The position numbers were made by a program, and so were the translations under genes. The notes beneath the pieces were generated by a model that worked only from the letters and a program-made list of their open reading frames with translations, had not been told where the DNA came from and ran no database searches. 64,000 bases of DNA, taken from positions 1,240,001 to 1,304,000 of the forward strand of contig NC_083371.1 in NCBI RefSeq assembly GCF_029542785.1. Direction: 5' to 3'. The stretch's first letter is position 1. Each line of letters begins with the position of its first letter. Of this stretch, positions 5,483 through 63,108 are shown piece by piece. Source of the stretch: Malassezia japonica. Taxonomy: Eukaryota; Basidiomycota; Malasseziomycetes; Malasseziales; Malasseziaceae.

Positions 5483-6386
5483 TCAGAAGCGCCGCGTACC
5501 TCCGACTGGCAGGGGAAGCATGACGTGGCCTGTAATCTCAAAGATGCGCTGCATCACTCCGCCGTGGCACGTAATGCTAATGACTGGGTGAGCCACAAAC
5601 CGTACCTCGCGCATCGTGCCCGGCACCCTGCCAAATCGAGTCCATGACCGTGCGGACGCGGTCGCGCATAGCATCGTCCGACTCGCGCTCCGGCTGCGTG
5701 AGGCACAAAACCTACCGTCCACAACAGGTCATCGTCTGCGAATCCAGGCTCGAACACGAGGTGCGGCGCGGCGAGCTCGCGCTCGACAATGCGAACCAAC
5801 TCCGCCTTGGTACTGCGCTTGTCGCAAGTGTGCTGGCCGCAGACTTCGCGTAGGTTCTCGTATATACAGAAGGTCGGCGCACAGACCCCCTCCCAGGACA
5901 GGTCGGCCGTGTGCAGACTGCGGTAGAACGGACTGGAGCAAAAGAGCTGCGGAAGGGGCGGCGCGTCGTTGCTTTGGCGTGCCGCCTTCCACGCCGCGTT
6001 TACTGCGCCTGCCTGTGCCTTGCCCAGCGGCGTGAGGCGCGGGTCGGGGCCCCACGTAATGTCGCCGTCGCCGCAGAGGCGCGCCCACTTGGCGTTCCAC
6101 GCTGGGCTGCCGTACTGGATGAGTTCCGCGCCGTACCTTTTCCTCGGCAAAGTCTGGTTAGCACACGGACATACTATGGTATCCCTGGCCATGGCGCGCA
6201 AGGTACACAAGCTTGTGCGGCACGCCCTCCCTTGCTTCGCGCGCTGCGTCAGTCGCGCGACGCACCTTGGAGCTCGTTGAGGAGCGCGCTCCACGACGTT
6301 CCTTCGAGGCCAAAGTTTGGCAGGATCGCCGCCCATTCGCCCGCGCGGTCGTACGCAAAGTACGGCAGCGCTTCGTACGCGCCCAT
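5483..6386 (-). CDS. Histidine phosphatase / phosphoglycerate mutase-like protein with five 21-22 nt introns
   Basis: 264 residues in six exons. Introns at 6244-6265, 6154-6174, 6115-6136, 5694-5715 and 5584-5605; exon 3 is only 17 nt (6137-6153). The splice choices are forced by continuity: exon 2 carries the catalytic LARHGQGYH, exon 3 encodes NFAEEK, exon 4 starts YGSPAWNAKW, and the last exons give ITCHGGVMQRIFEIT with the second catalytic His. This is the fold of fungal PMU1-type phosphatases; the true substrate is unknown. Without splicing the protein breaks in every frame. Start is the ATG at 6386 (MGAYEALPYF), 51 bp downstream of the stop of the acyl-CoA dehydrogenase gene ahead of it on the same strand. 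Confidence 0.88.
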
Positions 6387-6437
6387 GACCGTGTGGAGTA
6401 CTGGCTAAGCCATTGCGGATCTATGTGCTATGCGCGG

Positions 6438-7846
6438 TTAGAAACCCTTCTCCTTGGCGGTGAGGTTGAAGATGGTGTTCAGCTGGATGTTGCTGGTACC
6501 CTCGTAGATGGCACCAATCTTGCTGTCACGCCAGTACTTCTCGATACCCTGCTCGCGGGTGAAGCCCTGGCCACCGGCCCACTCGATGGCGGAACCCGCA
6601 GCACGCTGGGCCACCTGGCTCGAGAAGAGCTTGGCCATAGCGGCCTCCTTGGTGAACGGCAGGCCGGCTTCCTTGCGGCGGGCGGCGTTGTACACCATAA
6701 GGCGGGCAGCCTCGATCTCGGTAGCGATCTGGGCCATCTGGAACTGCATGCCCTGGAACTTGGCGATGGGCTTGCCGAACTGCTCGCGCTCAAAGGTGTA
6801 CGCAAGGCCGCGGTCAAAGGCACCCTGGGCAAGACCGACCATTTGCGCGCCGATACCGACACGGCCCTCGTTGAGGATCTCGATGGCGATCTTGTAGCCC
6901 TTGCCCTCCTCGCCGATCAGGTTCTCGATCGGGACCTTGACCTCGTCAAAGTTGACGGTGCAGGTGCTGCTGGCGCGGATACCGAGCTTGCGCTCCTTCT
7001 TGGCGATCTCGACGCCCATGTCCTTCTCCACGGCAAAGGCCGAGATACCCTTGTAGCCCTTCGAGGCGTCGCCCTGGGCGAAGACAATGAAGAACTCGGC
7101 CTCGGCACTGTTGGTGATCCACATCTTGGAGCCGTTGATGATCCAGTGCTTGCCGTCGTCCGACTTCTTCACGGTGGTCTTCATCGCGAAGGCGTCCGAA
7201 CCCGAGGCAGGCTCCGAGAGACAGAACGAGCCGAGCTTCTCGGACGAGAGGATGGGCATGTACTTGTCACGGAGCTCCTGGTTGGCGTACTTGCGGAGCA
7301 CAGTGTTGACGAGGGTCTGCGTTAGCAATAATACGTACGTTGTGCACGTCACACAGCACCGACACCGAGGGGTCGACCTTGGCGAGCTCTGCGGTGAGTT
7401 ACGGAAACGTACCCTCAATGACAATGATGGCAGCCATGAAGCTGCTGCCCGCACCACCGAGCTCGGGGTCGGTCTCGATGGCCATCAGGCCCTGCTCGAA
7501 GAGACCCTTGATGATCGCGGGGTCCATCTTCTCGTTCTCGTCCATCTCCTCGACACGGGGCTTGACCTCGTTCTCGGCAAAGCGGCGGACTGGATTAGCA
7601 GGGATACGTACCAGCATCACGAAGCATCTCCTCCTCCTCGGTAAACTTGTCGAGGGAGTTGATGCCCCACGGGCTCTCGTGCTCCTCGGCACGCTGGGCC
7701 GAAGTGTTGAAGCAGCGGGCCGACGCACGGGCAGGCGCACTGGTCGTAGGAGCACGCATGGCCGCAGGCACGGCCGTGAGCGAGCGCGTGCTGCGCACGG
7801 CAGCGCGAACAGCAGAAGTCTGACGAAGAAGCGAACGCATCGACAT
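6438..7846 (-). CDS. Mitochondrial acyl-CoA dehydrogenase
   Basis: 446 residues in four exons; introns at 7590-7611, 7389-7412 (24 nt) and 7317-7338. The start MSMRSLLRQTSAVRAAVRST opens an Arg/Ser/Ala-rich presequence for mitochondrial import. Exons then give the acyl-CoA dehydrogenase N-terminal, middle (FCLSEPASGSDA, KMWITNSAEA) and C-terminal domains, ending with the FAD and catalytic region GAIYEGTSNIQ, whose Glu is the catalytic base in this family. It oxidises acyl-CoA to enoyl-CoA and passes electrons to ETF. Sequence style is closest to short-chain or short/branched-chain enzymes; chain-length preference is an inference. The short third exon (50 nt) encodes ELAKVDPSVSVLCDVHN. Confidence 0.93.
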
Positions 7847-7948
7847 GGCGGATAAAGAATCGTAACCCCGGCCAGACCTTCCTGCCAGACCCGGTCTGAC
7901 CCTTGGCTCCACACACCGCATTGTGTGATTGGCTACAAACGTACATGA

Positions 7949-12156: not shown

Positions 12157-14122
12157 ATGGCATCTGTGAACCCGCTCGCGGGTGTTCCCCCTGGAAGTAC
12201 TGCTGCTATGGGTCCTCCGGGATCAATTGCTGCATCGCAGCCATTACCTCCCCCCCATGGCCCGCCGCATCCCGCCTCGCCGCCGCCCGGCGCCCACCCG
12301 CTGGCCGCGGGGGCGGTAGCCCCGGGCGGGGGTCAGTCGATCTGGTCGACCCGCCTTCTTGATCTGCTCAACCTCGTGCGCCATGAGTTCGATGTAATCG
12401 GCAACGACGCTGTGCATTTCAAGTCCCAACGCGATGAGATGGAGCACCGAGGTAGGTCCAGAGATCGCTTACCCGACAGTTGCGCAGCAATTCAACGAAG
12501 TGGGCCTCATGCAGGACCATGTGTACGAACTAGAGAAACGCCACTTTGAGATCGTCGCGCAGTACGAGGATGAGATTAAACGCCTTCGCGCCCTGCTCGA
12601 CGCGCGCGGTATCGCCGGCGCGCAGGACGCCCCGGGCGCTCTTTCTGCGCCGCCGAGTATGCCGCCGCGTCCGGCGGGCAGCTCGTCGCGTGGATCATCG
12701 CCGAACCGCGGCTACCCTCGACACGATCGCGGTGCGCACCCCGATGCGCTTGCGCCGCTGCCGCCCCGCGCATCGCAGGCGCCCGAAGGCGGCCCTTGGC
12801 CCCCCTCGAAGCGCGCAAAAACCAATGGAGCGTACGCGACTCCGCCGAGCGGTGATCTGCGCTCGCGCTTTAAGCGTGAAGAGCGCGAAGGAAAGCGACC
12901 AGGTACGTTGACTGGCTAACCTAGCGGGCGCACCCGAGTGGCAGGACGACGAGGAGCCGCATTCCGCGGCCGACGCCGACGCCCCGCCGAAGTCTACGTC
13001 AGCTGCGGCCTCCGAAGAGGCCGCATCTGGCGCCGATGCGAGTACTGAGGAGAGCGCCGAAAACGTCCAGCAGCTCAAGAAGGAGGGAAGCGACTGGGTG
13101 GCCCTGTACAATCCCAAGGTGCAGCCTTCCCTGGACGTAAACCTTGTGCATACGCTGATCCATGACAGTGTCGTGTGCTGCGTACGTTTTTCGCCCGATG
13201 GAAAGTACCTCGCGACGGGATGCAACCGTGCGGCGCAAATTTACGATGCCAAGACCGGAGCCAAGACTTGTGTGCTGCAGGAGGGCTCGTCGGACAACCA
13301 AGGCGACCTTTATATCCGCAGTGTGTGCTTCAGCCCCGATGGCAAGTACCTTGCCACCGGAGCCGAGGACAAGCAGATCCGCATCTGGGACATTGCGGAG
13401 AAGAAGGTCAAGTCCACGCTCACTGGCCATAAGCAGGAGATTTATTCGCTGGAGTACTCTAAAGATGGCCGGATCCTTGCCAGCGGTTCGGGAGATAAGA
13501 CGGTGCGCATTTGGGATATGGAAAAAGGCGGCGCGCTGCTCTATGTTCTCTACACCAGCCCTGGCCTGAACTACGGGCCGGGTGTGACGACGATCACACT
13601 CAGCCCCGATGGCCGCTTGGTGGCCGTGGGCGCTCTCGACACGTTTGTGCGCCTGTGGGACACCAAGACAGGCAAGCTGCGCTGCCGCCTCAAGGGCCAC
13701 AAGGACAGCATCTACAGTGTTGCTTTTATGCCGGACGGCCAGACGCTGGTCAGCGGTAGTCTCGACAAGACGCTCAAACTCTGGGATCTGTCGAGCATCA
13801 TCAAGGCCCTGGACTCGCTCGACGACGAGATCTCCAACTCGTCCATGTGCATTGCGACGTTCACCGGTCACAAGGACTATGTCCTGTCGGTATCGTGCGC
13901 GCCCCAGGGCAACTGGATCGCGTCGGGGTCCAAGGACCGCAGCGTCCAGTTCTGGGACCCCAAGACGGGGCAGTCTCAGCTCGTGCTTCAGGGACACAAG
14001 AACTCGGTCATTGCGATCAACCTAAGCCAGAGCGGAAATTTGCTTGCGACCGGCAGTGGCGACTTCAAGTACGTGGAATTGACTAACCCAGTGCACGAAT
14101 TTGGTCGTACGAAAGCACTTGA
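12157..14122 (+). CDS. TUP1: Tup1-like WD40 transcriptional corepressor
   Basis: 630 residues in four exons; introns at 12452-12479 (28 nt, the longest in the window), 12903-12924 and 14069-14091. The N-terminal helix (TRLLDLLNLVRHEFDVIG, then LMQDHVYELEKRHFEIVAQ) is the Tup1 tetramerisation and Ssn6-binding coiled coil; the first intron splits it. A Gly/Pro/Ser-rich and acidic middle follows. From about residue 320 there are seven WD40 repeats (FSPDGKYLATG; GSGDKTVRIWD; GSLDKTLKLWD; GSKDRSVQFWD), closed by GSGDFNARIWSYEST, whose last ten residues lie on the far side of intron 3. Tup1-Ssn6 represses gene sets through histones and Mediator; a CDK8-type Mediator kinase is encoded at 51.0-52.3 kb. 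Confidence 0.93.
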
Positions 14123-15120: not shown

Positions 15121-16372
15121 ATGCCTGGGGTGAACTCGATCAAGCTACTGACTGGCAACAGCCACCCCGAGCTCGCGCACCTTGTGTCTGCGCGGTATGT
15201 ATGTCTATGCTAATTCAGACTCGGCGTTCCGGTCACCGAGTGCGTTTGTCGCAAGTTTGCGGACCAGTCGATCGACGTCCGCATCGGCTCCTCGGTCCGT
15301 GACCAGGATGTCTTTGTGATTCAGTCGGGTTACTCGCCGTTCGTGGATGTGAATGACAGCCTGATGGAGCTGCTGATTATCTTGTCGGCATGCAAGACGG
15401 CATCGGCGCGCCGCATCACGGCCGTCATTCCGTCCTTCCCTTACTCGCGCCAGAACAAAAAGGACAAGAGCCGCGCGCCGATCACTGCCAAAATGGTCGC
15501 AAACATGATCACAGCCGCGGGTGCGGAGCACGTCATCACAGTCGACCTGCACGCGAGTCAGATTCAGGGGTTCTTTGACATCCCGGTCGACAACCTCACC
15601 TGCGAGCCGTCCATCGCTCGCTGGATCCGGAGTAACGTCGACGACTGGCGCGACGCCATTATCGTGTCGCCCGATGCGGGCGGTGCAAAGCGGTGCGTTT
15701 CTTGTCTTACCCAGTGCCACGTCGCTTGCGGATGTGCTCGGCATCGACTTTGCGCTCATCAACCGCAACCGCCGCCGCGAGCAGGCCCGGCGGCAACGCG
15801 CCGCCTCGCTCGAGCAGGGCAACGCTGACCTCTCAGCGTCGCAGCTGAGCAACTTCTCGGAAGTGGCGAACGGCGTGCACTCGCTGAGCGAGAGCGGCGA
15901 ATGGTTCATTACCGAAGAGAGTGGCCGCCGGCTGCGCAGCGGCGGCCACCGCCGCACGAACACTGGCGTGGATAGCGACGCGGGCGTGTCGGAGGACGAG
16001 AACGACTCCAAGATGGAGGTGCTGGTCGGCGAGGTCGCCGGCCGGACGGCGATCCTCATTGACGACATGATCGATACCGGCCGCACGCTCGCGCTTGCCT
16101 CCAAGACGCTCGAGGCAGCGGGCGTGAAGCGCGTCTATGCCGTGATCTCGCACGGCCTGCTGTCCGGCCGCGCGATGGACCTGATCAAGCGGTTGAACCT
16201 CGAGAGGCTGATTGTCACCAACACGATCAGCAACCAGGACAAGGCACGCAACAGCAACGACAAGCTGCAGATCCTCGACATGTCGGCCGTTATCGCCGAG
16301 ACGATCCGCCGCTCGCACCACGGCGAGAGCATTTCTACCATGTTCCGCCAGGATGCTGAGATGATGTTTTAG
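15121..16372 (+). CDS. Ribose-phosphate pyrophosphokinase (PRPP synthetase) with fungal insertion
   Basis: 401 residues in three exons; introns at 15195-15218 (24 nt) and 15693-15714. It makes PRPP from ribose 5-phosphate and ATP for purine, pyrimidine, NAD, His and Trp synthesis. Seen: [15 protein letters not shown] start, [18 protein letters not shown] catalytic region, [19 protein letters not shown], and the PRPP-binding loop [14 protein letters not shown]. Between NRNRRRE and [11 protein letters not shown] there is an extra stretch of about 70 residues, rich in Ser/Asn/Arg, absent from bacterial and human enzymes; its place resembles the non-homologous region of yeast Prs1. It is convergent with SPB4 with only 7 bp between stops. 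Confidence 0.93.
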
Positions 16373-16379: not shown

Positions 16380-18410
16380 CTACAGTGCGTCGAAGAACTC
16401 TGCATCGAATTCCTCCTGGGGCAGCTTGCCTTGCTTGAGCTTCTTGGCAGCACGCTCCTCGGCGCCCCAGTCGTCCTCGCTCTCGGGCTCGGCAGGGGCG
16501 GCCTCGGCCTCGGCCTGCTCGTGCAGCCAGCGGCGCTTGCGCTCCTTCTTTTCGCGACGCACGTCGCGGTTCTCGCGCCGCCGCTTTTGCTCGCTCCAGG
16601 CCTCGGCCTTGGGAGCTTTCGGCGCCGCTTTTGGCGCGGGCTCGGCGTCCTGGCGCTCGAGAGCGGCGAGACGCTGCGTCTCGCGCTGCTTGTCGGCATA
16701 CGCAAAAGTGCGGAGCTGGGTCAGCGGCAATACGTACATCCGGCAGTTCGTCTGCAAAAAGCGACTTTTTGCCCTCGTTGTGCTGCCGCCAGCGCGAAAT
16801 CTCGGGCATTCGCGGCAGGTTCAGCAGCGCAAATTCGCAGCCCATGTGGTCGAGCGGGAGGTCGCTCAGACGGAAGATGTAGTTCACCTCGTGCTTCGAG
16901 TAGGCCTTGACCCAGCTGACAAATGCACGCATTCCGAGCTCGTACAACGCACGGTCCTGGCGCACGGTCGCACGCAGCGCCGACTCGAGCTCGCGTGCGT
17001 CCTCATCGAGCTCCGGCTCGGGGCCGGGCGATGGCACGTCGCCGGCGAGCAGGTAGGGGTATGGACGCAGCGGAAGCTGCTTCACGTGCAGGTATTCTGG
17101 GTGAGCCTCGCGACGTACCAATGTAGCCTTCTTCGCGCCCCTCGTGCAGCATCACGATCGCACGTCCGCTGCGACCCGCGCGCGCCGTACGTCCGCAGCG
17201 GTGCGAAAAGACCTTGGGATCGCTCGGTGGGTCGTACTGGACGACGACGTCCACGTCCGGCAGATCCAGTCCACGCGCCGCAACGTCCGTGCAGAGCAGC
17301 ACACTGAGGCGTGCGTCGGTCGCGCCGGCGACGTCGCCGCCGCCCTGGCTGTTCGCGTGCGTAAATGCTTGAAAGGTCGCCGTGCGCCGCTTAGTTGTCT
17401 GCTTGCCATGCAGTGAAAAGAACTGCATGCCGGCCGTCCAGCGGTCCTTCTGCTTGCTCTGGCGCGCGAGAAGCGAGAAGAAATAGTTGACTTGCGCGCA
17501 GGTAGCAAAGTACACGATGCACTTGTGTGCGCCCCGCTCCGCCTCGTAGTGCAGCAGGCGCAGGAGCTGTGCAAATTTGTTTTCCGGGCGCGAGATGTGC
17601 GAAAAGCTCTGGAGCGTCGCCGGCATGCGAATGTCCTTGGTCGACCCCTTTTGCTTTGCCTCGACCTTGACCACTACACGCACAGGGTTGCGCAGCCCCA
17701 CACGCACGAGCTCGGTGAGCGCCTCGGTCATGGTCGCGCTGAACAGGCCGGTGCGGCGCTGCTTCGGAAGGTAGTTGAGTAGGGCACGGATGGGCTGCGT
17801 AAAGCCGAGATCGAGCAAGCGGTCCGCCTCGTCCATCACGAGCACGTCGAGCTCGCTGGTGCGCACACCCGGCTTTTTCAGCAGCTCTTCCATGCGCCCC
17901 GGCGTGCCGACAAGAATGTCGGGTCCCTCTTCGCGGAAGCGGCGGTAGTCTTCAGCCGGCACGACACTCGTGCCGCCGATGCACAACTGCACACCGCCCA
18001 CGCGCTTTGTCCGCGGTGCCTCGTCCTCCTCGCCGCGCACCTCGGCGTCCGGCTGGGCGTCCAGAAACGTCTGAAAGACGCTCGCGATCTGCTCGGCGAG
18101 CTCGCGTGTGGGGCACACGACGACCGCACCGAGCTCGTGCTTTCGCAGCACACTTTCTCTCCGCTGCAGAATCTCGAGAATGGGTATAACAAACGCGAGC
18201 GTCTTGCCCGAGCCCGTCACGGCCTCCGCGACGACGTCCTTGTGCGTAAGAAACAGCGGAATCGACGCGGCCTGCACCGGCGTCATCTGGCGAAAGTCCA
18301 TTTCTTTCAGCATGTCCAGTCTGTGTGAGCTGCTTCACATACATCCACGGGCTCAGGGCCGGGCGCACCGAGGCCCACGGCCCCGCCGCCATTGCCACGC
18401 TGCTCGCCAT
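16380..18410 (-). CDS. SPB4: Spb4-like DEAD-box RNA helicase (60S ribosome biogenesis)
   Basis: 654 residues in four exons; introns at 18321-18342, 17097-17118 and 16716-16737. Start [12 protein letters not shown] at 18410. Motifs in order: Q motif [40 protein letters not shown] (GLFSATMTE), [11 protein letters not shown] and [10 protein letters not shown]. The C-terminal extension ([38 protein letters not shown], then a Lys/Arg/Glu-rich tail) is the Spb4/DDX55 signature, not that of other DEAD-box proteins. Role: nucleolar remodelling of pre-60S particles. Introns 2 and 3 sit inside conserved blocks, which makes them certain. Confidence 0.93.
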
Positions 18411-29738: not shown

Positions 29739-30072
29739 ATGACGACAGCGAAGCGCACACCAGCCCAGACCGAGGTCATTCAGCAATGGGCGGATATGGA
29801 TTCGGAAGGTGCCACGTTTGAGCGCGGCCGCATGGAGGCGAACGTGCAGGCGATCTGCATCCAAGACCCTGCCGGTGTCCCCGACTCGCTGAAGGAGGCC
29901 GCGAAGGGCGTCAAGGTCAAGCCGAGCGACGTGTCCTACTTGGTACGCATCGAGACTAACGCAGACGCAAGAGTTCCTTCTGCCCACACACGCCGCCGAG
30001 GCGGCACTCGTCGCGAGCGGCGGCGATGTACAGGCTGCCGTCTCACGTCTTCTCCGTAGCGCGAGCGCATAG
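29739..30072 (+). CDS. HYPK-like UBA-domain protein
   Basis: 103 residues in two exons; intron 29943-29964. Start MTTAKRTPAQTEV at 29739; an in-frame ATG at 29628 also exists but would overlap the start of the opposite gene. The C-terminal 45 residues after splicing read VKPSDVSYLTQEFLLPTHAA, then EAALVASGGDVQAAVSRLL, which fits the UBA domain of HYPK, a partner of the NatA N-terminal acetyltransferase at the ribosome. The N-terminal half is less conserved and helical. Similar UBA domains occur in NAC-alpha, but the NAC domain is absent here. Confidence 0.68.
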
Positions 30073-49548: not shown

Positions 49549-50500
49549 CTATGAAGAGCGCGCACTGCGCCACGCGCCAGCAGGGCATGCACACGCGCCG
49601 TAGGATGGTACAGATCAAAGAAAAAGTAGCGATCCGCGTCCGCACACAGGTGGCGCTTGACGCCCTTCTCGAGCTTTTGCGTGCCAACGAGGCACGCGCC
49701 GGTGACGTTCGTCAGGCCGTACTTGTGGGGGTGCGCCTGGATCGTTGACTCAAGCGCGTCCGCGTCAAAGAGCGTCGCGTTCGCGCTGCGCACCGTCGGT
49801 ACCCACGCGCGCAGCGCACGGTTCACCGCCGAGGTAAAGAGGATCGTGTTGTTCTTCGTCTCGGCGTCCGCATAGGTGCGTGCCCAGGGCGAGGTCTGCA
49901 TCTCGCTCAGCGTGGGGATGAGCAGATGGCGCGCGCCGTGGTGCACCAGGCGCTCGCTCTCGGCACGCAGCGTGTGCACCGCGTCGTGCGCGAGCGCGGT
50001 TGCGTTACGGCCCGGCGTCAGGCCGAAAAAGGCGTCGTTCGAGCCGCCCGAGACAATGTACAGCGCATTGGGGTCCGCGCCGTGCGCCTTCTTCAGGTAG
50101 TGCGACACCTGCGTGCGCACATCCGGCACCGGGAGTGTCGAGTTGTAACCAGAGTAGCCCTTGGCGACGCTGTTGTTCGTCGTCGCGCTGCCGTGCGCGA
50201 GGTCGTCGACGTGCGAGATGTTCAAGAGGTCCGCGAGCTGCTCGGGCCACGTCGGGCCATTGCTGAAGCGGCCGCTGGGTCAGCGAAGCGACCTACTCAA
50301 AGTACGCAGGATCCGCGGGCCACGTCTTGTTCGACAAGAGGTAGGTGCCGTTGCCCTGCGTCAGTCGCGCGACGTACGTTATCCACAAGCGAATCGCCAA
50401 ACACGACGACCGCCGAGTAGCTCGCCGCGCCAAGCGCCGCGACAAACGGCGCGCCGAGCGCGCAGCCGGCCCACAGCCAAAAGAGGAGCGCGACGTACAT
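49545..50500 (-). CDS. Secreted GDSL (SGNH) esterase/lipase
   Basis: 303 residues in three exons; introns 50356-50377 and 50275-50296. Start at the ATG 50500; upstream only a TTG is in frame. Signal peptide [17 protein letters not shown]. Block I is FGDSLVDN with the catalytic Ser, continued over the first splice as [13 protein letters not shown], and over the second as [20 protein letters not shown]. Block III has [10 protein letters not shown] and the C-terminal block the [12 protein letters not shown]sp-x-x-His. Several N-glycosylation sequons are present. The closest look is CE16-type acetyl esterases and related fungal GDSL lipases. For a skin or lipid-dependent yeast an extracellular esterase would be useful; substrate is not known. 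Confidence 0.9.
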
Positions 50501-50547: not shown

Positions 50548-51009
50548 CTATACGGCGGAACGGCGTACGCCCGCAAGGCGGTCCATCACCGAGCCCACGA
50601 CCGGCATCGAGAGTACCTGGCCCACGCCCGGCACCTGCCGCAAAAAGTTGAGGATCACCGGGAAGAAGTCGCTGCGTGAGAAAAACAACCTACCCAAACA
50701 AGTTCAAAAAGCCGACCGTCTCGATGAGCATGCCCAGCAAGGTCAGGCGGCAGAACACGAGTGCCATGCCCGCAAAGAAGCACACCGTGCCCCGGATCTT
50801 TTGTTTCCGCGCAAAGAACGTGAGCGTGCGCTGCGGGCCGATCAGCATCGCAATGCCGGCCACAAACAGGATATTCCCGAGCGCAAGGAGCGTCGCATCA
50901 AAGAAGAGCAGCACGCCCACAAACAGGAAAAAGACACCGCCGGACACCAGGCCCACGCCAATCTCTGCGGTCAGCACAGCTACGCACTCTGTTGGTCACT
51001 GAGCCACAT
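50548..51009 (-). CDS. GOT1: Got1 Golgi transport membrane protein
   Basis: 138 residues in three exons; introns 50965-50987 (23 nt) and 50672-50693. The first exon is only 22 nt and encodes MWLSDQQ plus one base; splicing gives MWLSDQQKIGVGLVSGG, the Got1 N-terminus. Four membrane segments include FFLFVGVLLFFDATLLALGN and LIGPQRTLTFFARKQKIRGT with GMALVFCRLTLLGMLIETVG. The end is FPVILNFLRQVPGVGQVL, then MDRLAGVRRSAV. Got1 is needed with Sft2 for ER-Golgi vesicle fusion and COPII traffic. All three parts are conserved, so the micro-introns here are certain. Confidence 0.94.
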
Positions 51010-51042: not shown

Positions 51043-52290
51043 TCAGCCAGGTGCGCGCCGCGCGCGCGAAACAATCGGGTGCGTGTCGCTAAGGACGACC
51101 TTGCCGGGGGGGTAGGGCGACGTGCCGTTCGGCAGAAAAGCGAATGCGCTGGGTTAGTTAGGGACCTACTTTGCCGTCGGCAGCGGTTCCTCGGAGAACC
51201 AGGGGTGGCGGAGCGCCTCGGCGGCCGTGACGCGCCGCGCAGGATCGTATTGCAGGAGCCGATCGAGCAGGTCAAAGCCCGCCGAGGTGCCCGCACGGTT
51301 CGTGTACCACTGGTAGAGTGTGCGCGGGAGGCTGCGTTAGCAGAGGTACATACGCGTCGCCACGGCGCAGCGCGCTCCAAGCGCCATAGTCGGGCAGGGA
51401 GTCCATCGTCGGCCACCGCTCCTTGGTCGGCGTGCCGAGGATGTCGACAATCTTTCCGAGCTGGTTCCTGTCTTAGTCGAGGAAAGGACGTACGTCTGTA
51501 GCGGCACCGTCTTGACCTTGGGGCCCATGCGAATCTCTTCGCCTTTAAACATGGGCCGCAGTGCGATGAGCTCGCCCCAGATGCACCCGACAGCCCATAG
51601 ATCGACCGCCGGCGTATAGTGCCGTGCGCCGAGCAGCAGCTCGGGCGCTCGGTACCAGATCGTGACGACCACCATGTCGCTCGCGTACAGCGACACCATC
51701 GGGTCAGCGTACACGCGCGCAAGGCCCAGGTCGCCGATCTTGACAACGCCGCGCGCGGTAATCAGGATGTTGGCCGGCTTCAGATCACGGTGCATGATCC
51801 AATTCTCGTGCAGATACTGCACGCCATTGAGCACCTGCCACAGAAGCGACTTGATCATTGCGCCGCTCACCGGCGTGCGCAGCACTGTGAGGTGGTGGTG
51901 AATGATCTGCAGAAAGTCGTGCTCGACAAACTCGTACACCAAAAAGATGGCATTCTCCTCGAGCATCACCTCGCGCAGCCACACGACATTCTCGTGGCGC
52001 AGCTCACGATTCAGCGCAATCTCGCGCACGGCACTCTGGCTGATCCCGGTGAAGGTCGTCGTGCTCCCTTCGCGGTCGGGCTTGAACTTTTTGATCGCAT
52101 ACACGCCCGGCTCGCGTGCAAAGGCGCCGGGGGGCAGGATCTCTTGCGCTTTGTACACCCGGCCGTACGTCCCGGAATTCAAGAATCCAATCACCCGGTA
52201 GCGCGACAAGACCGGCCGCCGCTGCGCGTCGCGCGCCTGCCGGTAGGCGCGCATGACCTCGGCGGCGGACACCGCGCCTCGCTCCGCCAT
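51043..52290 (-). CDS. SSN3: CDK8/Ssn3-like Mediator cyclin-dependent kinase
   Basis: 392 residues in four exons; introns 51468-51493 (26 nt), 51332-51353 and 51149-51169 (21 nt). Start [18 protein letters not shown] at 52290. Kinase motifs: [14 protein letters not shown] (Gly loop), YAIKKFKPD (Lys), [20 protein letters not shown] (C-helix Glu in a CDK8-type SxSAxRE), [11 protein letters not shown], and the activation segment [13 protein letters not shown] with [20 protein letters not shown]. The last is diagnostic for CDK8, which has no phosphorylated T-loop Thr. CDK8 with cyclin C, Med12 and Med13 forms the Mediator kinase module. After the kinase fold, exons 3-4 add [13 protein letters not shown] and a short basic tail. 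Confidence 0.93.
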
Positions 52291-52320: not shown

Positions 52321-53368
52321 ATGCCCGAGCCGTTCTCGATTGTGGACGCGTTCCACAGCGCCTTGCGCGACGACGAAGATCTCCCGCAGCCCATTGCGGC
52401 GATCTTTGCGCTGTCCGAGATGATTGCCTCGTCGAACGCCGCGACTACGTCCGAGCTTATGGAGAGTATCAAGACCGCTTCCGAAGAACTCAAGCAGAGC
52501 CTCTCAAATCCGATTCCTGCGTCGGCAGGCCTCGAGCTGTTCATGCGTTTTGTCACGACAAAGAACTGGGCTGGCGGCGTACGTATCTCGACTTATGCAG
52601 GACTTTCAAGCTCACAAGCACAGTCTCATTACGACCGCGCTCGAGTTTGCACACAATACGGTGCCGAGCTGCCGCGAGCGCATCACGACGCTCCTTCTCC
52701 CGTTCATCAAGGACGATACGGTAGGTTTCTACGCTGACGCAGGTCATCCTCACGCACGGATACTCACGCGTGGTGATGCAGGTGCTCCTCGCCGCCGCCA
52801 AGACGCAAAAGAAGCGCATCAGCGTCTATGTCTCGGAGAGCCGTCCGTCGGGGCAGGGGCTGCGTACTTACAACCGCCTCATGGCCGAGGGTATCCCATG
52901 CACCGTCGTGCTCGATTCGGCCGTTGCCTACATTGTGCACAAGGCCGACATGTGCCTGATCGGCGCGGAAGGCGTCGTGGAGTCGGGCGGCCTCTTTAAC
53001 GCAGTCGGCTCTTACCAGATGGGCATCGTTGCCAAGGCGGCGCACAAGCCGGTCTTTGCGGTGGCCGAGAGGTACGTCGACCGACTAATCCAGCTTCAAG
53101 TTCCTCCGCATGTTTCCCCTCTCCCAGTACGACCTGCCGAACGCGTCGAAAGTGCTGCCGTTCCCCAGCGCCGGCGAGGCGGAGAACGTCGACGGGGCGA
53201 CGCACATGACGCCGGCGATGGAGGCACTTAATCCCTTGGTACGTCGACGCGCTCACCTAGATCGACTATACCCTCCCCGAGCTCGTCACGTTCATCGTGA
53301 GCGACATTGGCATTCTGACGCCGTCGGGTGTCTCGGATGCGCTCTTGGCTGTGTACGGTGGCGACTAA
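52321..53368 (+). CDS. GCN3: eIF2B alpha subunit (Gcn3)
   Basis: 319 residues in five exons; introns 52579-52600, 52721-52742, 53072-53093 and 53239-53260, all 22 nt. Start MPEPFSIVDAFHSALRDDED. Seen: helical N-terminal domain, VILTHGYSRVVMQVLLAAAK, ISVYVSESRPSGQGLRTYNR, CTVVLDSAVAYIVHKADMCL, IGAEGVVESGGLFNAVGSYQ, and the end SDALLAVYGGD. eIF2B is the guanine nucleotide exchange factor for eIF2; the alpha subunit senses phosphorylated eIF2 and is central to general amino acid control. Divergent from CDK8 (30 bp). Its TAA stop directly abuts the stop of DRS1. Confidence 0.95.
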
Positions 53369-55835
53369 CTACCGGCGCCCGCGCCCGCGCGGCGCCTTGC
53401 CGGGTGCCTTGCCTTTGGGTGAAGGCTTGGGCTTGGATGGCTTGGACCGACTCGCACTCATGTCGCGCCCAAACGCACCGCCCTTGTCGCTGGACGTGAG
53501 CTCTTTCGAGATCTTGCGCTTCTTGGACTTGGGCGGCTTGGGGTTGTACTTGGGTGCACTCGAGCCGAGCTCGGTGGGGCGCTGCGCGCGCTTCGCAGCA
53601 CGGATACTCGCGTCGATGTCGCGCTGCGTTAGTGAATAGACGTACCGAAAAGTTCTCCTTCGCATCCTCCTCCTTCATCAGACGCACACGCTTCTGCCGG
53701 CGTGACAGGCCCGCAAAGCGGTCCTTGCCTTTACGCTTCTCGGCCGCCGCAGCCGCGTCCATCTTCTTGACGTACTCTTCGCGCGAGGCGCCTTTCGCCT
53801 CCGCCTTATCCTTTTCGCTCTGGAACCAGGTGCGCGCGGGACGCGAGTAGATCTCGTCCTGGTGCGCCAGCATATTCTCGCTCTTTTGCAGCTGCATCTC
53901 AGCCTGGCGCAGCGCACGCTCCTCCTTCTCCTCTGCAAGCACCTGCTCGATCTCGGGCTTGAGCGAATCAATCGCATCGCTGACCTTTTGGATGACGTCG
54001 GCGGACAAGAGGCGGTGCTTCACCTGCTCGGGCGGCGTGCGCTTCAGCACGGCCTTGAGCAGGCGGCGGTCGGCCTCGCCGACAAGCGTCACGGAGCGAC
54101 CGTGGCGTCCGGCACGCGCCGTACGACCGACACGGTGCAAATACGGCTCGAGTTGAGCGGGCATATCATAGTTGATGACGGTCTGCACGCCACGGATATC
54201 AATACCACGACTCGCGAGGTCGGTCGCGAGCAAAAAGTCGACTTTGCGGTCGCGGAAGTTCATGAGTGACTGCAGACGCTGCTCCTGGCTCAAATCACCG
54301 TGCAGCTCGGCCGCGGAGAGGCCCAGCAAACCAAAAATGATCTTGAGCTGGTGCGCGAGCTTCTTGCTGCGCACAAAAATGATGACCTGGTCGCGGAAGG
54401 TACGCATGCACAGAGAGAGGAGCAGCGACGCACGCTGGCCATCCTCGGCGTTCTTGCGCTCGGCCGCAGACAGGTTCGCCGGCACACGCACACGCACAAA
54501 CTCTTGGATGAGCTTGGCGGCAGTCGAGCGCTTGGGGTCGACAAACAAACGCACCGGGCGCTCGAGCGAGAGACGCACCAGCTGGTCGACGTCGTCCGTC
54601 ATTGTCGCGGAAAAGAGCATCGTCTGGCGCTGAGTGGGGCACGAGCGCACGATCTCGTTGAGCTGCGCCTCAAATCCGTCCTCGAGCATACGATCGGCCT
54701 CGTCCATAACGAGAATCTCAATGTCCTCGATACCGAACGACGAGCTGTTTTGCATATGATCAATAAGACGGCCGGGCGTCGCAATAATGATATCAGGGCG
54801 CATCTTGAGCTCGGCCTCTTGCGACTTGACCGACAGACCACCGACACACAGGCAAAAACGCACGTCCATAAACTTGGCAAGCGCCACACCGACACTGTGG
54901 CACTGGATTGCGAGCTCGCGCGTGGGGCACAGAATCACAACACGCGACCGTGCATCCTCGACACCTTTCTGGCGGTACGAGAGACGCTCGAGAATGGGGA
55001 TAAGGAAAGCGGCCGTTTTACCACTGCCGGTCACCGCGCCGGCCACAATGTCCTTGCCAGCGAGTGCAATGGGGATGGTACGCGCCTGGATCGGCGTCGG
55101 TTTGTGGAAGTTCATCGCGTCGAGGGCACGCAGGAGCGCGCGGTTCAGACGGAGCGCAGAGAACGACAGGACTTCAGGCTTGGTCTCTTTGTCTTCTGTC
55201 GCAAAGTACTGTGTCTTGCGTTCGTCATCGGCATCGTCCTCATCCTCGTCCTCGTCCTCATCGATTTCCTCGTGTTCCTCTTCCTCATCTTCCTCCTCGT
55301 CCTCGTCCTCGTCTTCCCCTTCATCCAGAGGGTCCTCCTCCTCTTCCTCCTCTTCCTCCTCTTCGCCGTCTTCCACTGCTCGTGCGCCGCTGCCGAATCC
55401 TTCGCCATCGCTCTCTTCACTTTCGTACGCACCCTCCTCGTCCTCGCCCATGACCTCGGCAAGTACAGGCTTGGACTGCGCGGCGCGACGCCGCTCAATG
55501 ATGTCGTCGACCGTCAGGCGCGAGGCTTCGGCGCTATTCGCGCCTTTCGCGCGGTCCACGTGAAAGTTCCAGTCATGCACGTTTCCTGTAGCACCGGAAT
55601 CCATGCCATCGTCAAACTCAAACTCGTCCATCTCGAGCGTCTCATTGGCATCAGGCGCACGCTTCGCACGCTTGCCATCGTCGACAATCTTTTCGCGCGC
55701 GTTGATGCTCGCCTTCTGGCCCTTGCGCGGCAGCTCCGGCTCAGTCTCCTTCACATCGACGTCTACCTCGTCATCTGAATCCAGCGTCATGACAAAGTCG
55801 TCGCGCAGAGCGCGCCCCCCTTTGCTCGACACCAT
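53369..55835 (-). CDS. DRS1: Drs1-like DEAD-box RNA helicase (60S biogenesis)
   Basis: 814 residues in two exons; intron 53624-53645. Start MVSSKGGRALRDD at 55835. A long acidic N-terminal region (Glu/Asp runs, 55227-55380) precedes the helicase core: HKPTPIQARTIPIALAGKDI (Q motif), [79 protein letters not shown]. The C-terminal basic region reads EEYVKKMDAAAAAEKRKGKD and after splicing RDIDASIRAAKRAQRPTELG. The acidic front and this tail fit Drs1/DDX27, which acts in 27S pre-rRNA processing. Confidence 0.93.
55227..55380 (-). repeat. Trinucleotide-rich (TCC/CTC) tract coding Glu/Asp runs in DRS1
   Basis: A pyrimidine-rich tract of TCCTC and CTCGTC units on the plus strand encodes long acidic runs ahead of the helicase core. 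Strong strand asymmetry; likely prone to length change. Confidence 0.75.
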
Positions 55836-57516: not shown

Positions 57517-58621
<1,105 letters not shown>

Positions 58622-58679: not shown

Positions 58680-61600
58680 ATGGCCATGCCGGAGTGCCTC
58701 GAGGGGATTCCTATCGGCGTGGTGCTCGTGCAAGTGCGCCCTGCGTCGCCTGTTGAGAGCCAGGGAGGGGGCGTGCTCAAGGAGGAAGAGATACAGCGTC
58801 TCGCAGCGTGCACAGAGACCGCATCGGTCCTCCACGACCTCGCCGCCCTCCAAAGCCTCCACGCGCTCGAGGCCGAGGTCGAGCGCGATGCGTGGAACCT
58901 ATGGTGCGCAGGGATGTATGCAGGCACGATGCGCATACGCATCTATGCGGCGGCTTCCGAGCGGCACAGGACACCACGCAAATCCAAGCGGCCGCCCCCA
59001 CCGCGGCCCGCCGCCACGCTCTGGGAACGCGTTCTGCCGCACGTCTTGGTCGGCACGCTGGAGTGGCACGCACTGAGCCGCGAGTCCGATGCGACGCCAA
59101 GCGACGCCAAGCATTTCTGGCGCGAGGGACTCGTACGTACTGTTACTCACCCAGTCGCAATGGTCGCTCGCCGAACTATACCGCCGCCTGCCTAGTCCAC
59201 CGGACGCGCAGCTGGATCTGGATATTCCGCTCAAGTGCACGCTCTATTCGTACCAATGCAACTCTCTCGCAAAGTTGTTGCAGCGCGAGCTCGAGCCAGA
59301 GAGCTACTGCGACCCATATTTTTTGCAGCGGACATGCCCTGTGCCGATGCGCAGTGGCGAGCGCTCCTATGCCATGGATCCTGCGACGTACGAATTCTTT
59401 CCGTGCTCTGCGGTGAGTGTCTACCCCGACTTGAAAGGAGGAATCTTGTGCGACGAGATGGGCGTCGGCAAAACGATCATCTGCATCGCGCTTATTCTAA
59501 GCACCCTTTCGCACGTCTCGCAGCCGGACCAGGAGCCCATGGCGAGCGCGACAACAAGTCTTATGGCACTCCAGTTTCCGCAGCACGAGTACCAAGGTGC
59601 AGATCCCGCGCGAGGACTTGCGCTTGACCTCGTCACGGCACCGTTTGGCGCACCGAGTCCGGGCGAGCGCATCTCGCGCGTACGCCCGCCTAAAGCAACA
59701 CAGGCTGAGACGCCGCCGCCGAAAGAGCATATCGAAGGACGTGTATCGTTGGCCGAGATTGCTGCGCATCGCCTGCGTACGACCAACATGTGTCCTCCGT
59801 CGGTGCTTGCGACTTTGCCGCCCCAGCTGCAAGACCTGCTCGGCCTTGCTTCTGCACCGTTCATCCATCTATGGCCGCCGCCGCCCACGCGTATGTCACG
59901 TATTAGCCAGAGCCGTACACCGCTGCGTGTCTACCTGACATCGGCGACGCTCGTCCTTGTCCCACTCACGCTCCTTGTCCAGTGGCTCGAAGAGATCGAG
60001 AAGCACTGTGAGCCCGGCGCACTGCGTGTGCTGGCGGTTCCTGATATACATACACCCCTGCCGGATGCGTTGCACCTCGCGCAGGGCTATGACATTGTGC
60101 TCATGTCCCACTCGCGTTTCGGCAAGGAAGCTGGCGACGATCAGCAAGGCATGCGCTCGGACCTCGACGCGTCGCCCATCATGCAAGTCTACTGGAAGCG
60201 CGTGATCATTGACGAAGGTAACATGCTCGCAGGCGACTCGCTCGTCGTCCGTCTGTGCTCCTATCTCCGTGTCGAACGCCGCTGGATCGTCACAGGCACA
60301 CCGACCGAGGCGCTGGTCGGCTCGAGTCTCAAAGCGTCGGGCGCCGCGCTCACGTCCCCGTCCAAGGCACGCCCGACATCGTGGACCCCTGCGGAACGCA
60401 AGAGTCTCGACCGCTTGAAATTGCTCCTGGTGCGTTTCCTTCGACTCGCACCGTTTGTCGGGGCGTCCGCGAGCATGGCCTCAGCCGCAAAGGCGTCTGG
60501 TCTTCCATCGGGCAAGGAGCGCGACTGGAATGCTCTGATGGCCGCACCGCCAGACAACAGCGGTGAGTGGACGGCCAAGTGCCGTCTGTATGATGTCTTG
60601 GCCCGCGTCATGGTACGTAACCGCGTCGAAGACGTCGAGCGCGAATGCCCCTTGCCGCCGCTTGAGCACCGCGTGGTATCGCTGGCCCTTTCTGACTTGG
60701 AGCGCAAGACTTACAATGTCCTGCAGTCGCTCATTGTCTTGAATGCGGCGCTATCCGAAGAGTCTGACAAGGACTATTTCTTCCACCCAAGTAACCGCAA
60801 AGCGCTAGCCGCTGTCATGGAAAACTTGGCGCTTGCCTGCTTTCACTTTGCCGGTCAGGGCTTCTTGGAGCAGACCAAAAGCGCACGCGACCTGATCGAG
60901 ACACAGTATGCTTCGCTCAAGGAGCCCTACAAAGAGCGCGTCCATGAGGCGATGTGCCAGCTTGACGCGGCGCTCGAAGATGAAACATGGAAGGAGCATT
61001 TGGCCCGTGGAGACGTCTTGTACACGACGCAAGGCGCATCCGGCGAGCTTGTGCAAGCGTGGACCAGCCGCTCAGCGACGCACATGACCTCGGAGGAGCT
61101 CGTCTCGATGCGCCGAGCCTGCGCCGAAGCGTTGCGAGAGAGCAGCCTAGATGCAGACGACCTCTATGACGAGCTCATTACAAAAGGGATGCAGTACGCC
61201 CAGCGTAAGCAGGGGAAGTCGCCGGGACGCACGCCGGATGCGCCAAAGACGGTTGTGACCCTCGCCTCGGACCACGCGACCGCCTCGGCGAATTTGCAGC
61301 GTGCACGTCATTCGATTCAGCCACGGGGCCGCGCGCGTGCGCCTTGGGAAGAGGAGATTACGCTCCCTGAAGGAATGGACGACATTCGCGTCACCAAAAC
61401 GTCGTCGACGAAGCTGGACGCAATGTTGGTTGAGATCCTCACGTCGATCGAGTCGGAAAAGGTGCTCGTCTTTTCTATGCTGGACAATGTGCTCTTTGAG
61501 CTTGCCGCAGCACTCGATGTCGTACAAGTGCCTTATTTGTGCTATGTTGCAGGTATGCCGCAAAAGCTCCGAAATGAGTACGCAAGCAGTTTCGCTCACT

Positions 61601-62025
61601 CGTCGACCTACCGCTGCCTGCTCATGTCGACAACGGTGGGTGGCCGTGGGCTCGATTTGCACTGTGCCAGCCGCGTTCTATTTGCTGAGCCTGTCTGGCA
61701 GCTGGATCTGGAGAGCCAAGCGATTAAGCGTGCGTGGCGCATGGGGCAGACACGACCGGTCGTCGTATCGACCTACGTCATGCAGCACACGTTCGAGGAT
61801 CGGCTAGTGGTGCGTAAAAAGGCGCGCATCGCCGAGCTCCACGAGACCAGTACGATCGACGATGCCAAGACACTCACAGAGGACCCCGGCATGCGCGATT
61901 TTGTCGCCCACCCGCGGTTTGTGCAGCCCGCTCCTGCAGAGGAGACACGGTTGTCCTGTTCTGCCTTTCAAATGACACCGACCAAGGACGAGGGGCCGAA
62001 GAAGCGCGCAAAACATGTACATTAG
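58680..62025 (+). CDS. SNF2-family helicase-like ATPase, Rad5/Rad16 group without RING
   Basis: 1107 residues from the ATG at 58680 (MAMPECLEGIPIG) in two exons, or 1127 from the in-frame ATG at 58620; intron 59133-59154 joins HFWREGL to SQWSLAELYRRL. Helicase motifs: GGILCDEMGVGKTIICIALI (Walker A, from 59440), VIIDEGNMLAGDSLVV (Walker B as DEGN, 60211-60222), RWIVTGTPTEAL, and in lobe 2 VLVFSMLDNVLFEL, MSTTVGGRGLDLHCASRVLF, QAIKRAWRMGQTRPV. The order and long spacing between lobes recall Rad5/Rad16/Irc20 ATPases but no RING Cys/His cluster is visible between them. Function: DNA translocation on chromatin is expected; the pathway is not known. Confidence 0.85.
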
Positions 62026-62029
62026 GGTA

Positions 62030-63108
62030 TTAGGGAACAGAATACGTAGGCACGCTGTGCCACAAATGCTCGACCACCCACTCCAGCGAGGAGTAAGAGA
62101 GATTCAGCGACGCGCATACAGGGCGAAAAGGCAAACCAATATTGGGGAGCTGGTCGTGTTGATGCATCGCGAGGGCAACGTACGACAGATACGAATGCAG
62201 CACGTCTGGTGACTCGCCTGGAACCTTGGCAATGCCACCCCGCTTGGACTGGGCAGATAGGAGGTAGGAAGCGTCGGATGCCGCATCGATCGCCGCATGG
62301 CATCCGAGGATCTTGGCCGTTGCGCCGCACCAAAACGAATAGCAGGTATCTTGCTCTTTTTCCACGCGGCCCTGAAATCCAGAGAGGGGCACTTGTCGAG
62401 AGAGCACCCACTGCTCGAGCTTGTCGCGGTTGGGGATGCAGTCAAGCCGCTGCGCCAGCGCCAACGCCGCAACAACACAGTAGGTCGATCCTCCGTGTGA
62501 CTCTAAATCAGGTTCCTGAGCAAATGCGCCTTCATAGTGCTGGCATCGTAGAACATTTTCCTGAGCGAGATCCACGTCTACCATGCTCCAGTCGTTCAGT
62601 AGGTAAGCAATCGCAAATGCGCAGTACGTAAATCGCACATCCTGTTCCGCCGAGTCTGCAGTACATAAAAAGCTGTATTAGACAAGGATCGTACCTTCCA
62701 TCCTTCTGTTGCATTTTCTGTACGTGGGTCTTGATCCCTTCGCGATCCAGCCGCTGAAAGTCGTCCCGGAGAATGGCAAGCGTTAGAAGGGCAGTGTACG
62801 TCATGGTAAGATGGCCTTGTTCCGCGGCCGGGGACCCCCGAAATCCGCCACCATGCGCCGTATATAGTTGCTGTGCATATACCCAGTCGATATAGGCACG
62901 ACGCTGCCCCGCCGACACCACCGCGTCGAGCTTCTGCAGGAGATCCAAACCCCCCAAGCAAAAGTAACCCAACGTCATCCTGCGTTATTCAGGCCACGCA
63001 CCGCTGGTGATCTGCCGATATGTATGGCTGGGGAAGTCCTGACAAATGAAGCTGCCAGAACTTGGCGTGTAGCTTTTCGTTCAAGACCGGCGCTTCCTCC
63101 ATTGTCAT
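62030..63108 (-). CDS. CDC43: Geranylgeranyltransferase type I beta subunit (Cdc43)
   Basis: 344 residues in three exons; introns 62980-63001 and 62673-62694. Start at ATG 63108, with a second ATG two codons on. Spliced motifs: MTLGYFCLGGLDLLQKLD, GGGFRGSPAAEQGHLTMTYT, FLCTADSAEQDVRFTYCAFA, SHGGSTYCVVAALALAQRLD, the zinc-site QDTCYSFWCGATAKIL (Cys in KEQDTCYSFW), and SYLSYVALAMH with the last His ligand upstream in DVLHSYLSY. It attaches geranylgeranyl to CaaL proteins such as Rho1 and Cdc42, together with the shared alpha subunit Ram2. The second intron sits inside a stretch that would read through without a stop, so homology is needed to see it. Confidence 0.92.

What the first reader, a model, noticed from the sequence alone, without database searches (positions are those of the whole stretch)
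5483..63001. A uniform class of 22-nt spliceosomal introns; no intron longer than 28 nt in 64 kb
Restoring the continuity of conserved proteins forced 45 introns in 22 genes. Lengths: 21 nt (2), 22 nt (36), 23 nt (3), 24 nt (2), 26 nt (1), 28 nt (1). Eighty percent have exactly one length. Typical fungal minimum introns are clearly longer; comparable sizes are known to me only from some ciliates and nucleomorphs. Such a sharp peak implies the spliceosome measures or tolerates one geometry. Many gene predictors would miss these or call frameshifts.
Basis: partly seen in the sequence, partly recalled or inferred. Interest (0 to 1): 0.85.

Follow-up and report, generated by a model that had tools for sequence, protein, structure and literature searches.

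The report
Uniform 22-nucleotide introns in Malassezia japonica
In this stretch of a skin yeast's chromosome, 36 of 45 introns (pieces cut out of the messenger RNA) are exactly 22 letters long, close to the shortest known in nature, which gives a fungal system for asking how small an intron the splicing machine can handle.

Summary
A gene finder without length preference put 34 of 48 calls at 22 nt; ten decoy dinucleotide pairs gave 0-3. Pairing splice motifs without coding information gave 31 pairs at 22 nt against 0.1 expected and none at 25-49 nt. Planted introns of 20-200 nt were recovered in 494 of 540 cases, so longer ones should have been seen. The species is Malassezia japonica: its deposited eIF2B-alpha equals my four-intron splice over 319 residues. 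In all 36 the branch A is at position 17 with a 5-nt tail. Relatives carry introns of about 25-39 nt at homologous sites, so the genus is not locked to 22; M. japonica seems to sit at a floor (inference). Short Malassezia introns are in print; the passages I read describe no 22-nt mode. RNA evidence and the whole-genome histogram are missing: the genome server did not complete. A strong fungal member of the known ultra-short, length-uniform kind.

The parts
5584..5605 (-). 22-nt intron, phosphoglycerate mutase-like gene (5471-6386; name by eye)
5694..5715 (-). 22-nt intron, mutase-like gene
6115..6136 (-). 22-nt intron, mutase-like gene; relative P0121 fits 22 nt (or 29) here with a different spacer
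6154..6174 (-). 21-nt intron (tail 4), mutase-like gene; 17-nt exon between it and the next; relative P0121 also 21 nt
6244..6265 (-). 22-nt intron, mutase-like gene
7317..7338 (-). 22-nt intron, acyl-CoA dehydrogenase (6438-7846)
   Evidence: PDB alignment contiguous
7389..7412 (-). 24-nt intron, acyl-CoA dehydrogenase
7590..7611 (-). 22-nt intron, acyl-CoA dehydrogenase
12452..12479 (+). 28-nt intron, Tup1 (12157-14122)
   Evidence: contiguous with the 6 of 12 aligned relatives that span it
12903..12924 (+). 22-nt intron, Tup1 (variable linker)
14069..14091 (+). 23-nt intron, Tup1 last WD repeat; about 23-27 nt in relatives
15195..15218 (+). 24-nt intron, ribose-phosphate pyrophosphokinase (15121-16372)
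15693..15714 (+). 22-nt intron, ribose-phosphate pyrophosphokinase
16716..16737 (-). 22-nt intron, DEAD-box helicase, Spb4-like by eye (16380-18410)
17097..17118 (-). 22-nt intron, Spb4-like helicase
18321..18342 (-). 22-nt intron, Spb4-like helicase
21786..21807 (+). 22-nt intron, small gene 21620-21974
22630..22651 (-). 22-nt intron, Vps74/GOLPH3 (22004-23195)
23411..23432 (+). 22-nt intron, gene 23255-23796
23711..23732 (+). 22-nt intron, gene 23255-23796
24062..24083 (+). 22-nt intron, gene 23828-24698
28888..28909 (+). 22-nt intron, ankyrin-like gene by eye (28593-29153)
29084..29106 (+). 23-nt intron, ankyrin-like gene
29943..29964 (+). 22-nt intron, gene 29658-30072
39121..39142 (+). 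22-nt intron, separase-like gene by eye (38641-44277)
39752..39773 (+). 22-nt intron, separase-like gene (inside the finder's 163-nt call)
42012..42033 (+). 22-nt intron, separase-like gene
45031..45052 (-). 22-nt intron, RRM protein (44824-46276)
46388..46409 (+). 22-nt intron, Sec24-like gene by eye (46338-49548)
50275..50296 (-). 22-nt intron, GDSL-type hydrolase-like gene by eye (near 49549-50500)
50356..50377 (-). 22-nt intron, GDSL-type hydrolase-like gene
50672..50693 (-). 22-nt intron, Got1-like gene by eye (50548-51009)
50965..50987 (-). 23-nt intron (tail 6), Got1-like gene
51149..51169 (-). 21-nt intron (loop 16), CDK8/Ssn3 (51043-52290)
   Evidence: 1-residue gap at the junction
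51332..51353 (-). 22-nt intron, CDK8/Ssn3
   Evidence: 3-residue gap beside the junction
51468..51493 (-). 26-nt intron (loop 21, CTAAG box), CDK8/Ssn3
52579..52600 (+). 22-nt intron, eIF2B-alpha (52321-53368); relative P0013 fits 33 nt (or 35, 38) here
   Evidence: (M. japonica entry identical)
52721..52742 (+). 22-nt intron, eIF2B-alpha
53072..53093 (+). 22-nt intron, eIF2B-alpha; relatives P0010 39 nt, P0013 33 nt (or 31)
53239..53260 (+). 22-nt intron, eIF2B-alpha
53624..53645 (-). 22-nt intron, DEAD-box helicase, Drs1-like by eye (53369-55835)
58539..58560 (-). 22-nt intron, Krr1-like gene by eye (57517-58621)
59133..59154 (+). 22-nt intron, SNF2-like gene by eye (58680-62025)
62673..62694 (-). 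22-nt intron, geranylgeranyltransferase I beta (62030-63108)
62980..63001 (-). 22-nt intron (ATAAC box), geranylgeranyltransferase I beta

Best explanation
These are ordinary GT-AG (U2-type) spliceosomal introns of Malassezia japonica, compressed to nearly the bare recognition signals: a 5' splice site (GTNNGT, mostly GTACGT), a spacer of about 7 nt, a CTNAY branch box, one free base and YAG. Splicing would make a lariat loop of 17 nt with a 5-nt tail, and the 3' site is the first AG after the branch A, so there is no room for a polypyrimidine tract. Shown from sequence: the segments, their architecture, restored reading frames and protein homology. Inferred: the branch A itself (from the motif), excision by the major spliceosome, and the cause of the sharp length. 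I think deletion pressure in a compact genome pushed spacers down to the shortest loop this lineage's spliceosome handles well (about 17 nt, tail 5 nt). Shorter ones splice badly and are lost; longer ones erode. A length of 3n+1 also makes retained introns shift the frame.
For: Length and frame. Architecture: branch A at position 17 and tail 5 in 36 of 36 22-mers; loop 17 in 38 of 45, tail 5 in 41 of 45; no loop under 16, no tail under 4; 3' AG is the first AG after the branch A in 45 of 45. Splice correctness: NCBI M. japonica eIF2B-alpha identical over 319 of 319 residues to the four-intron splice; 13 of 15 junctions free of gaps within three residues against PDB homologues. Shrinkage: inserts in other Malassezia-like proteins fit introns of 25, 25, 26 (or 24), 27, 33 (or 35, 38), 33 (or 31) and 39 nt at homologous sites, with a possible branch box; close relatives fit 21, 22 (or 29) and 23 nt with changed spacers. 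Frame: lengths mod 3 are 37 (3n+1), 4 (3n), 4 (3n+2); all four 3n introns carry an in-frame stop, the pattern reported for Paramecium (PMC5014332, passages).
Against: No transcript data were available, so excision is inferred. The relatives' lengths come from back-translated read-through peptides, which show only some introns, and 4 of the 10 cases allow other lengths. Two of 15 PDB-checked junctions lie beside alignment gaps. Stentor splices 10-nt loops (PMC9505925), so 17 nt is no universal limit, and a floor in this lineage is an inference. Deletion bias was not measured. snRNAs and splicing factors were not examined.
Confidence: 0.85

Rival explanations
1. The M. japonica spliceosome is locked to one geometry: it measures a 17-nt loop and 5-nt tail and cannot splice clearly longer introns (a ruler, not a floor).
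For: 36 of 36 22-mers share branch position and tail; motif pairs at 25-49 nt number 0 against 2.6 expected.
Against: Introns of 24, 26 and 28 nt with loops of 18-21 and tails up to 8 exist in the same window; inserts in other Malassezia proteins fit 25-39 nt introns at homologous sites.
Confidence: 0.12
2. Length is set mainly by quality control: 22 nt is 3n+1, so any retained intron frameshifts and the transcript is destroyed, and selection keeps that class.
For: 37 of 45 are 3n+1 and the four 3n introns all hold an in-frame stop; the same pattern is reported in Paramecium (PMC5014332, passages).
Against: 23 (3n+2) would shift the frame as well, yet only 3 of 45 have it, and 25 nt is absent; four 3n introns are too few for a test.
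Confidence: 0.15
3. The segments are copies of one mobile or self-copying intron element (introner), which explains the single length.
For: One pair shares an identical 7-nt spacer.
Against: All 36 22-mers differ; spacer identity is 0.31 against 0.26 for random sequence of the same composition, an excess that column preferences could give; exon flanks are at 0.25-0.27 identity; several intron sites are shared with other Malassezia proteins.
Confidence: 0.02
4. The segments are sequencing errors, frameshifts or pseudogene damage rather than introns.
For: Each interrupts an open frame.
Against: Motif pairs at 22 nt are 31 against 0.10 expected; decoy dinucleotides do not reproduce the peak; conserved proteins are restored.
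Confidence: 0.01

Closest known systems
Stentor coeruleus (heterotrich ciliate) 15-16 nt introns
   Same: GU-AG introns with one dominant length, branch A at a fixed position and a 5-nt tail (PMC9505925, section 4 part 1 and section 10 read)
   Different: Loop of 10-11 nt against 17; AU content 75.6% against 54% GC in the introns here; no strong branch consensus there, a clear CTNAY box here
Mikrocytid 16-17 nt introns
   Same: Very narrow size range with conserved ends (PMC10245619, passages)
   Different: Parasite with a reduced spliceosome, 224 introns in 179 genes; here a fungus with 0.75 introns per kb of coding sequence in the window
Paramecium introns (mode 25 nt)
   Same: Ultra-short; 3n introns rich in in-frame stops (PMC5014332, passages)
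   Different: Mode at 25 nt; a share of 80% at one length is seen here, that share was not looked up for Paramecium
Chlorarachniophyte nucleomorph introns (18-21 nt)
   Same: Short and narrow (as stated in PMC10245619, passages)
   Different: Relict endosymbiont nucleus, not a fungal nuclear genome
Malassezia restricta introns
   Same: Same genus; short; annotated with intron minimum 15-20 nt (PMC6473144, passages)
   Different: Median 30 and mean 37.2 nt (PMC9241646, table passage), against a median of 22 in this window
Trichomonas vaginalis type B introns
   Same: Down to 23 nt, branch box fused to the 3' site (PMC12316389, passages)
   Different: Intron-poor genome; type A introns of 56-196 nt exist beside them
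Microsporidian introns (recalled; paper not held)
   Same: Fungus-related lineage with some introns in the low twenties of nt
   Different: Few introns per genome; could not be compared here

Membership tests
U2-type (GT-AG) spliceosomal introns | GT...AG boundaries with a 5' site complementary to U1/U6 | tested here: met
   45 of 45 GT-AG (required by the finder); 41 of 45 match GT[AG]NGT. GTAAGT is rare (1 of 45), GTACGT common (24 of 45). Pairing to this species' own U1/U6 not tested
U2-type (GT-AG) spliceosomal introns | Branch box with A upstream of the 3' AG | tested here: met
   CTNAY in 43 of 45, one CTAAG, one ATAAC
U2-type (GT-AG) spliceosomal introns | Removal restores conserved proteins | tested here: met
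   (7 of the 22 intron-bearing genes compared with homologues)
U2-type (GT-AG) spliceosomal introns | Spliced in RNA; U1, U2, U4, U5, U6 snRNAs in the genome | not tested
   No RNA data; genome search unanswered 27 times; no Rfam match at gathering threshold in the window itself
Length-uniform ultra-short introns (as in Stentor, mikrocytids) | Most introns at one length under 30 nt | tested here: met
   36 of 45 at 22 nt, all at 28 nt or less, in this window only
Length-uniform ultra-short introns (as in Stentor, mikrocytids) | Uniformity holds across the genome | not tested
   Genome server did not answer; window is 64 kb
Introners | Sequence similarity between copies | tested here: not met
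   36 distinct 22-mers, spacers near random
U12-type introns | RTATCCTTT-like 5' site (recalled) | tested here: not met
   Donor hexamers are GTACGT, GTAGGT, GTGCGT, GTATGT, GTACGG, GTACGC, GTAAGT, GTACGA; AT-AC as a decoy gave no length peak

The most novel reading that the evidence does not exclude
M. japonica has, genome-wide, a Dikarya spliceosome that has adapted to one 22-nt geometry (17-nt loop, 5-nt tail): longer introns have essentially gone from the genome, 3' site choice no longer uses a polypyrimidine tract, and snRNAs or branching factors have changed to fit, for example a U1 change matching the +4 C of GTACGT. To my knowledge this would be the narrowest intron length in Dikarya and a genetically approachable counterpart to Stentor.
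Probability: 0.25. Interest if true: 0.8.

Novelty: new member of a known kind. Interest (0 to 1): 0.62.

Why it matters
A 2025 paper calls a 23-nt Trichomonas intron one of the shortest known (PMC12316389, abstract passage), and another says Cryptococcus, mean 56 nt, has the highest share of short introns among the fungi it studied (PMC11913375, passages). A yeast with 80% of the introns in a 64-kb window at exactly 22 nt sets a far lower reference for Dikarya, as far as I saw. Homologous introns of graded length in congeners make shrinkage visible inside one genus. It also bears on intron-loss studies: Malassezia is described as having few intron-bearing genes (PMC3744415, passage) and M. 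sympodialis is used as an intron-poor species (PMC8476143, passages), yet 22 of 39 genes here carry introns (0.75 per kb). If annotation pipelines drop tiny introns, some 'loss' is missed detection; I did not test M. sympodialis.

Tried and rejected
Whole-genome work was the main gap. DNA of relatives was sought with eIF2B-alpha, as possible contamination, in viral contigs and bacterial and archaeal genomes: 0 relatives found (the tool says that records very near the window may be left out). An Rfam scan of the window gave 0 matches at gathering threshold.

Rejected: introners, sequencing error, U12-type introns, and the gene finder's long introns. An earlier count gave 38 nt for P0126 and P0131; that hand reading was wrong, the script gives 25 nt.

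I opened 12 papers, all as passages or sections, none whole (PMC7426719, PMC4634964, PMC9241646, PMC6473144, PMC5654937, PMC9505925, PMC10245619, PMC8476143, PMC12316389, PMC3744415, PMC5014332, PMC11913375); no passage that I saw describes a 22-nt mode in Malassezia. The M. sympodialis proteogenomics paper (10.1093/nar/gkx006) is not held, nor is PMC6349667 on microsporidian introns, and subscription papers are mostly missing from the library, so prior description cannot be excluded. Searches failed because a search term was too short.

Gene names without a search behind them (mutase-like, Spb4, Drs1, Krr1, Sec24, Got1, separase, SNF2, ankyrin, GDSL hydrolase) were read by eye from the translations.

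Full report
What was claimed. The finding says that 45 introns in 22 genes of this 64-kb window have lengths of 21-28 nt, 36 of them exactly 22 nt, and that none is longer. I rebuilt the gene models without using those counts as input to the finder.

Unbiased gene finding. A dynamic-programming gene finder was trained on the long open frames of the window, with a uniform intron length prior from 12 to 250 nt and only GT and AG required at first; splice motifs were then learned. It called 48 introns, 34 of exactly 22 nt. With ten other dinucleotide pairs in place of GT-AG, 22 nt was called 0 to 3 times, against 22 (no motif model) and 34 (motif model) for GT-AG. The decoys produced 46-62 calls in all, so such a finder invents introns freely; the evidence is the pile-up at one length and the higher score, not the number of calls. 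I read each of the seven calls of 45 nt or more in sequence. The 45- and 86-nt calls fuse neighbouring genes. The 163- and 82-nt calls contain a 22-nt intron each. The 47-, 87- and 105-nt calls lie in open frame and are not needed. The 86-nt call hid a 23-nt intron at the start of a Got1-like gene. A 28-nt intron in Tup1 at 12452 had been missed because the finder began the gene too late. The curated set has 45 introns with the same length counts as the finding, in 22 of 39 gene models, 0.75 per kb of coding sequence; 37 of the 39 models read as one open frame with a final stop, two have imprecise 3' ends in my table. A run allowing 1000 nt ended with calls of 47, 163 and 413 nt over 30 nt, the last a fusion of two genes.

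Test without coding information. Pairing every GT[AG]NGT with every downstream CTNAYNYAG on both strands gives 31 pairs at a total length of 22 against 0.10 expected. There are none at 25-49 nt (2.6 expected), and counts at longer lengths are near chance; 39 of the 52 3' modules in the window end a curated intron. Power was checked by planting introns of 20-200 nt with the same end modules: 494 of 540 were recovered exactly, 87-96% per length bin, with 74 of 568 calls false. With 0 of 45 above 28 nt the upper 95% bound on that share is 6.4%. Introns with quite different signals, or in UTRs, would escape these tests.

Architecture. In all 36 introns of 22 nt the branch A (assigned by motif) is at position 17 and the tail is 5 nt; over all 45 the loop is 17 nt in 38 and the tail 5 nt in 41; no loop is under 16 and no tail under 4. 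Forty-three of 45 have CTNAY; the exceptions are CTAAG (26-nt intron) and ATAAC (intron at 62980). The 3' AG is the first AG after the branch A in 45 of 45. The consensus is GTACGT-N7-CTNAY-N-CAG; GTACGT is the donor in 24 of 45 and GTAAGT in 1. The 36 22-mers are all different, spacers are close to random (one pair identical) and exon flanks are unrelated, so this is not a family of copies. Phases are 17, 14 and 14.

Species and protein evidence. The database protein of Malassezia japonica eIF2B-alpha is identical over 319 of 319 residues to my splice with four 22-nt introns, so at least these four are already annotated. Six spliced proteins were compared with PDB sequences and all six matched: of 15 junctions, 13 have no gap within three residues and 2, both in CDK8, lie beside gaps of 3 and 1 residues. 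For Tup1, 12 of 16 hits were aligned. The 28-nt junction is contiguous with all six that span it; the 22-nt junction lies in a variable linker and says nothing; at the 23-nt junction seven of the 12 agree with my splice and five read into the intron. Homology was thus checked for 7 of the 22 intron-bearing genes; the rest stand on frame and motif.

Relatives. Ten read-through peptides were back-translated and tested for motifs and for exon resumption at the homologous position. Close relatives fit the same length: P0128 23 nt, P0121 21 nt and 22 nt (29 also possible), with changed spacers. Others fit longer introns: 25 nt (P0126, P0131), 26 or 24 nt (P0130), 27 nt (M. yamatoensis, P0123), 33 nt (P0013 site 1; 35 or 38 also possible), 33 nt (P0013 site 3; 31 also possible) and 39 nt (P0010), at sites where M. 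japonica has 22 or 23. So 4 of the 10 allow other lengths. These are only introns that happen to be readable as protein, so they show that longer introns exist, not how common they are. M. restricta has a median of 30 nt (PMC9241646, table passage) and was annotated with minimum lengths of 15-20 nt (PMC6473144, passages); M. globosa annotations average 76-79 nt (PMC4634964, table passage).

Annotation damage. M. furfur and M. equina eIF2B-alpha entries lack 7 residues directly after intron 1, M. equina also 13 after intron 2, and the M. yamatoensis entry lacks 3 after intron 1, as if predictors had extended a too-short intron (inference); the M. yamatoensis Tup1 entry appears to retain 27 nt. 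The mutase-like gene with five introns gave one hit at E<=1e-60, a partial unspliced reading of an unnamed relative; none of the 16 Tup1 hits at E<=1e-200 is named M. japonica, from a capped candidate list. The five-intron gene has a 17-nt exon between a 21- and a 22-nt intron.

How it most likely works. The ends look like standard U2-type signals, so the major spliceosome is the likely machine (inference; no RNA data, and snRNAs could not be searched). With the branch A 5 nt from the 3' end there is no room for a polypyrimidine tract, so 3' choice is probably the first AG after the branch. The length peak is best read as a floor reached by shrinkage: neighbours in the genus can be longer with similar modules, the window has a few longer introns, and only 2 of 45 are shorter. 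Stentor splices loops of 10 nt (PMC9505925, section 4 part 1 and section 10 read), so the floor would be lineage-specific. Frame quality control may contribute: 37 of 45 are 3n+1, and the four 3n introns all carry an in-frame stop, as in Paramecium (PMC5014332, passages); but the rarity of 23 and absence of 25 nt argue that it is not the main cause.

Against known systems. It works like the length-uniform ultra-short introns of heterotrichs, mikrocytids and nucleomorphs and meets the window-level features of that kind. Genome-wide uniformity and RNA evidence were not testable. 'Malassezia has very short introns' is in print (PMC7426719, passage). No passage I saw in the 12 papers opened after ten searches describes a sharp 22-nt class, but the M. 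sympodialis proteogenomics paper was not available.

Noticed in passing
window 6137-6153 (-): A 17-nt exon between a 21-nt and a 22-nt intron in the mutase-like gene.
   Followed up: partly
window 14165-15049 (-), 33430-35766 (-), 44288-44806 (-), 44824-46276 (-): Several RNA-processing genes lie in one window: PWI-domain (SRRM1-like by eye), GCFC plus G-patch (TFIP11/Ntr1-like by eye), Thoc5, and an RRM protein. Three of the four have no intron.
   Followed up: partly
donors of the 45 introns: The +4 position is mostly C (GTACGT 24 of 45, GTAAGT 1 of 45), a mismatch to the usual U1 5' end (recalled). A matching U1 or U6 change would be worth looking for.
   Followed up: no
P0003, P0006, P0012, P0123 (database proteins): Malassezia eIF2B-alpha and Tup1 entries appear misannotated at tiny introns: 7, 13 or 3 residues lost next to intron sites, or 27 nt retained.
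   Followed up: yes
P0013 (eIF2B-alpha), peptide YVQQRDTLTHER: A further insert that looks like an unspliced intron of about 36 nt at a site where M. japonica has none, suggesting intron gain or loss within the genus. Read by hand only.
   Followed up: no
window, positions 9, 11 and 13 of the 22-nt introns: Weak column preferences in the spacer (C at 9, pyrimidine at 11, purine at 13), perhaps an extended branch-box pairing.
   Followed up: no
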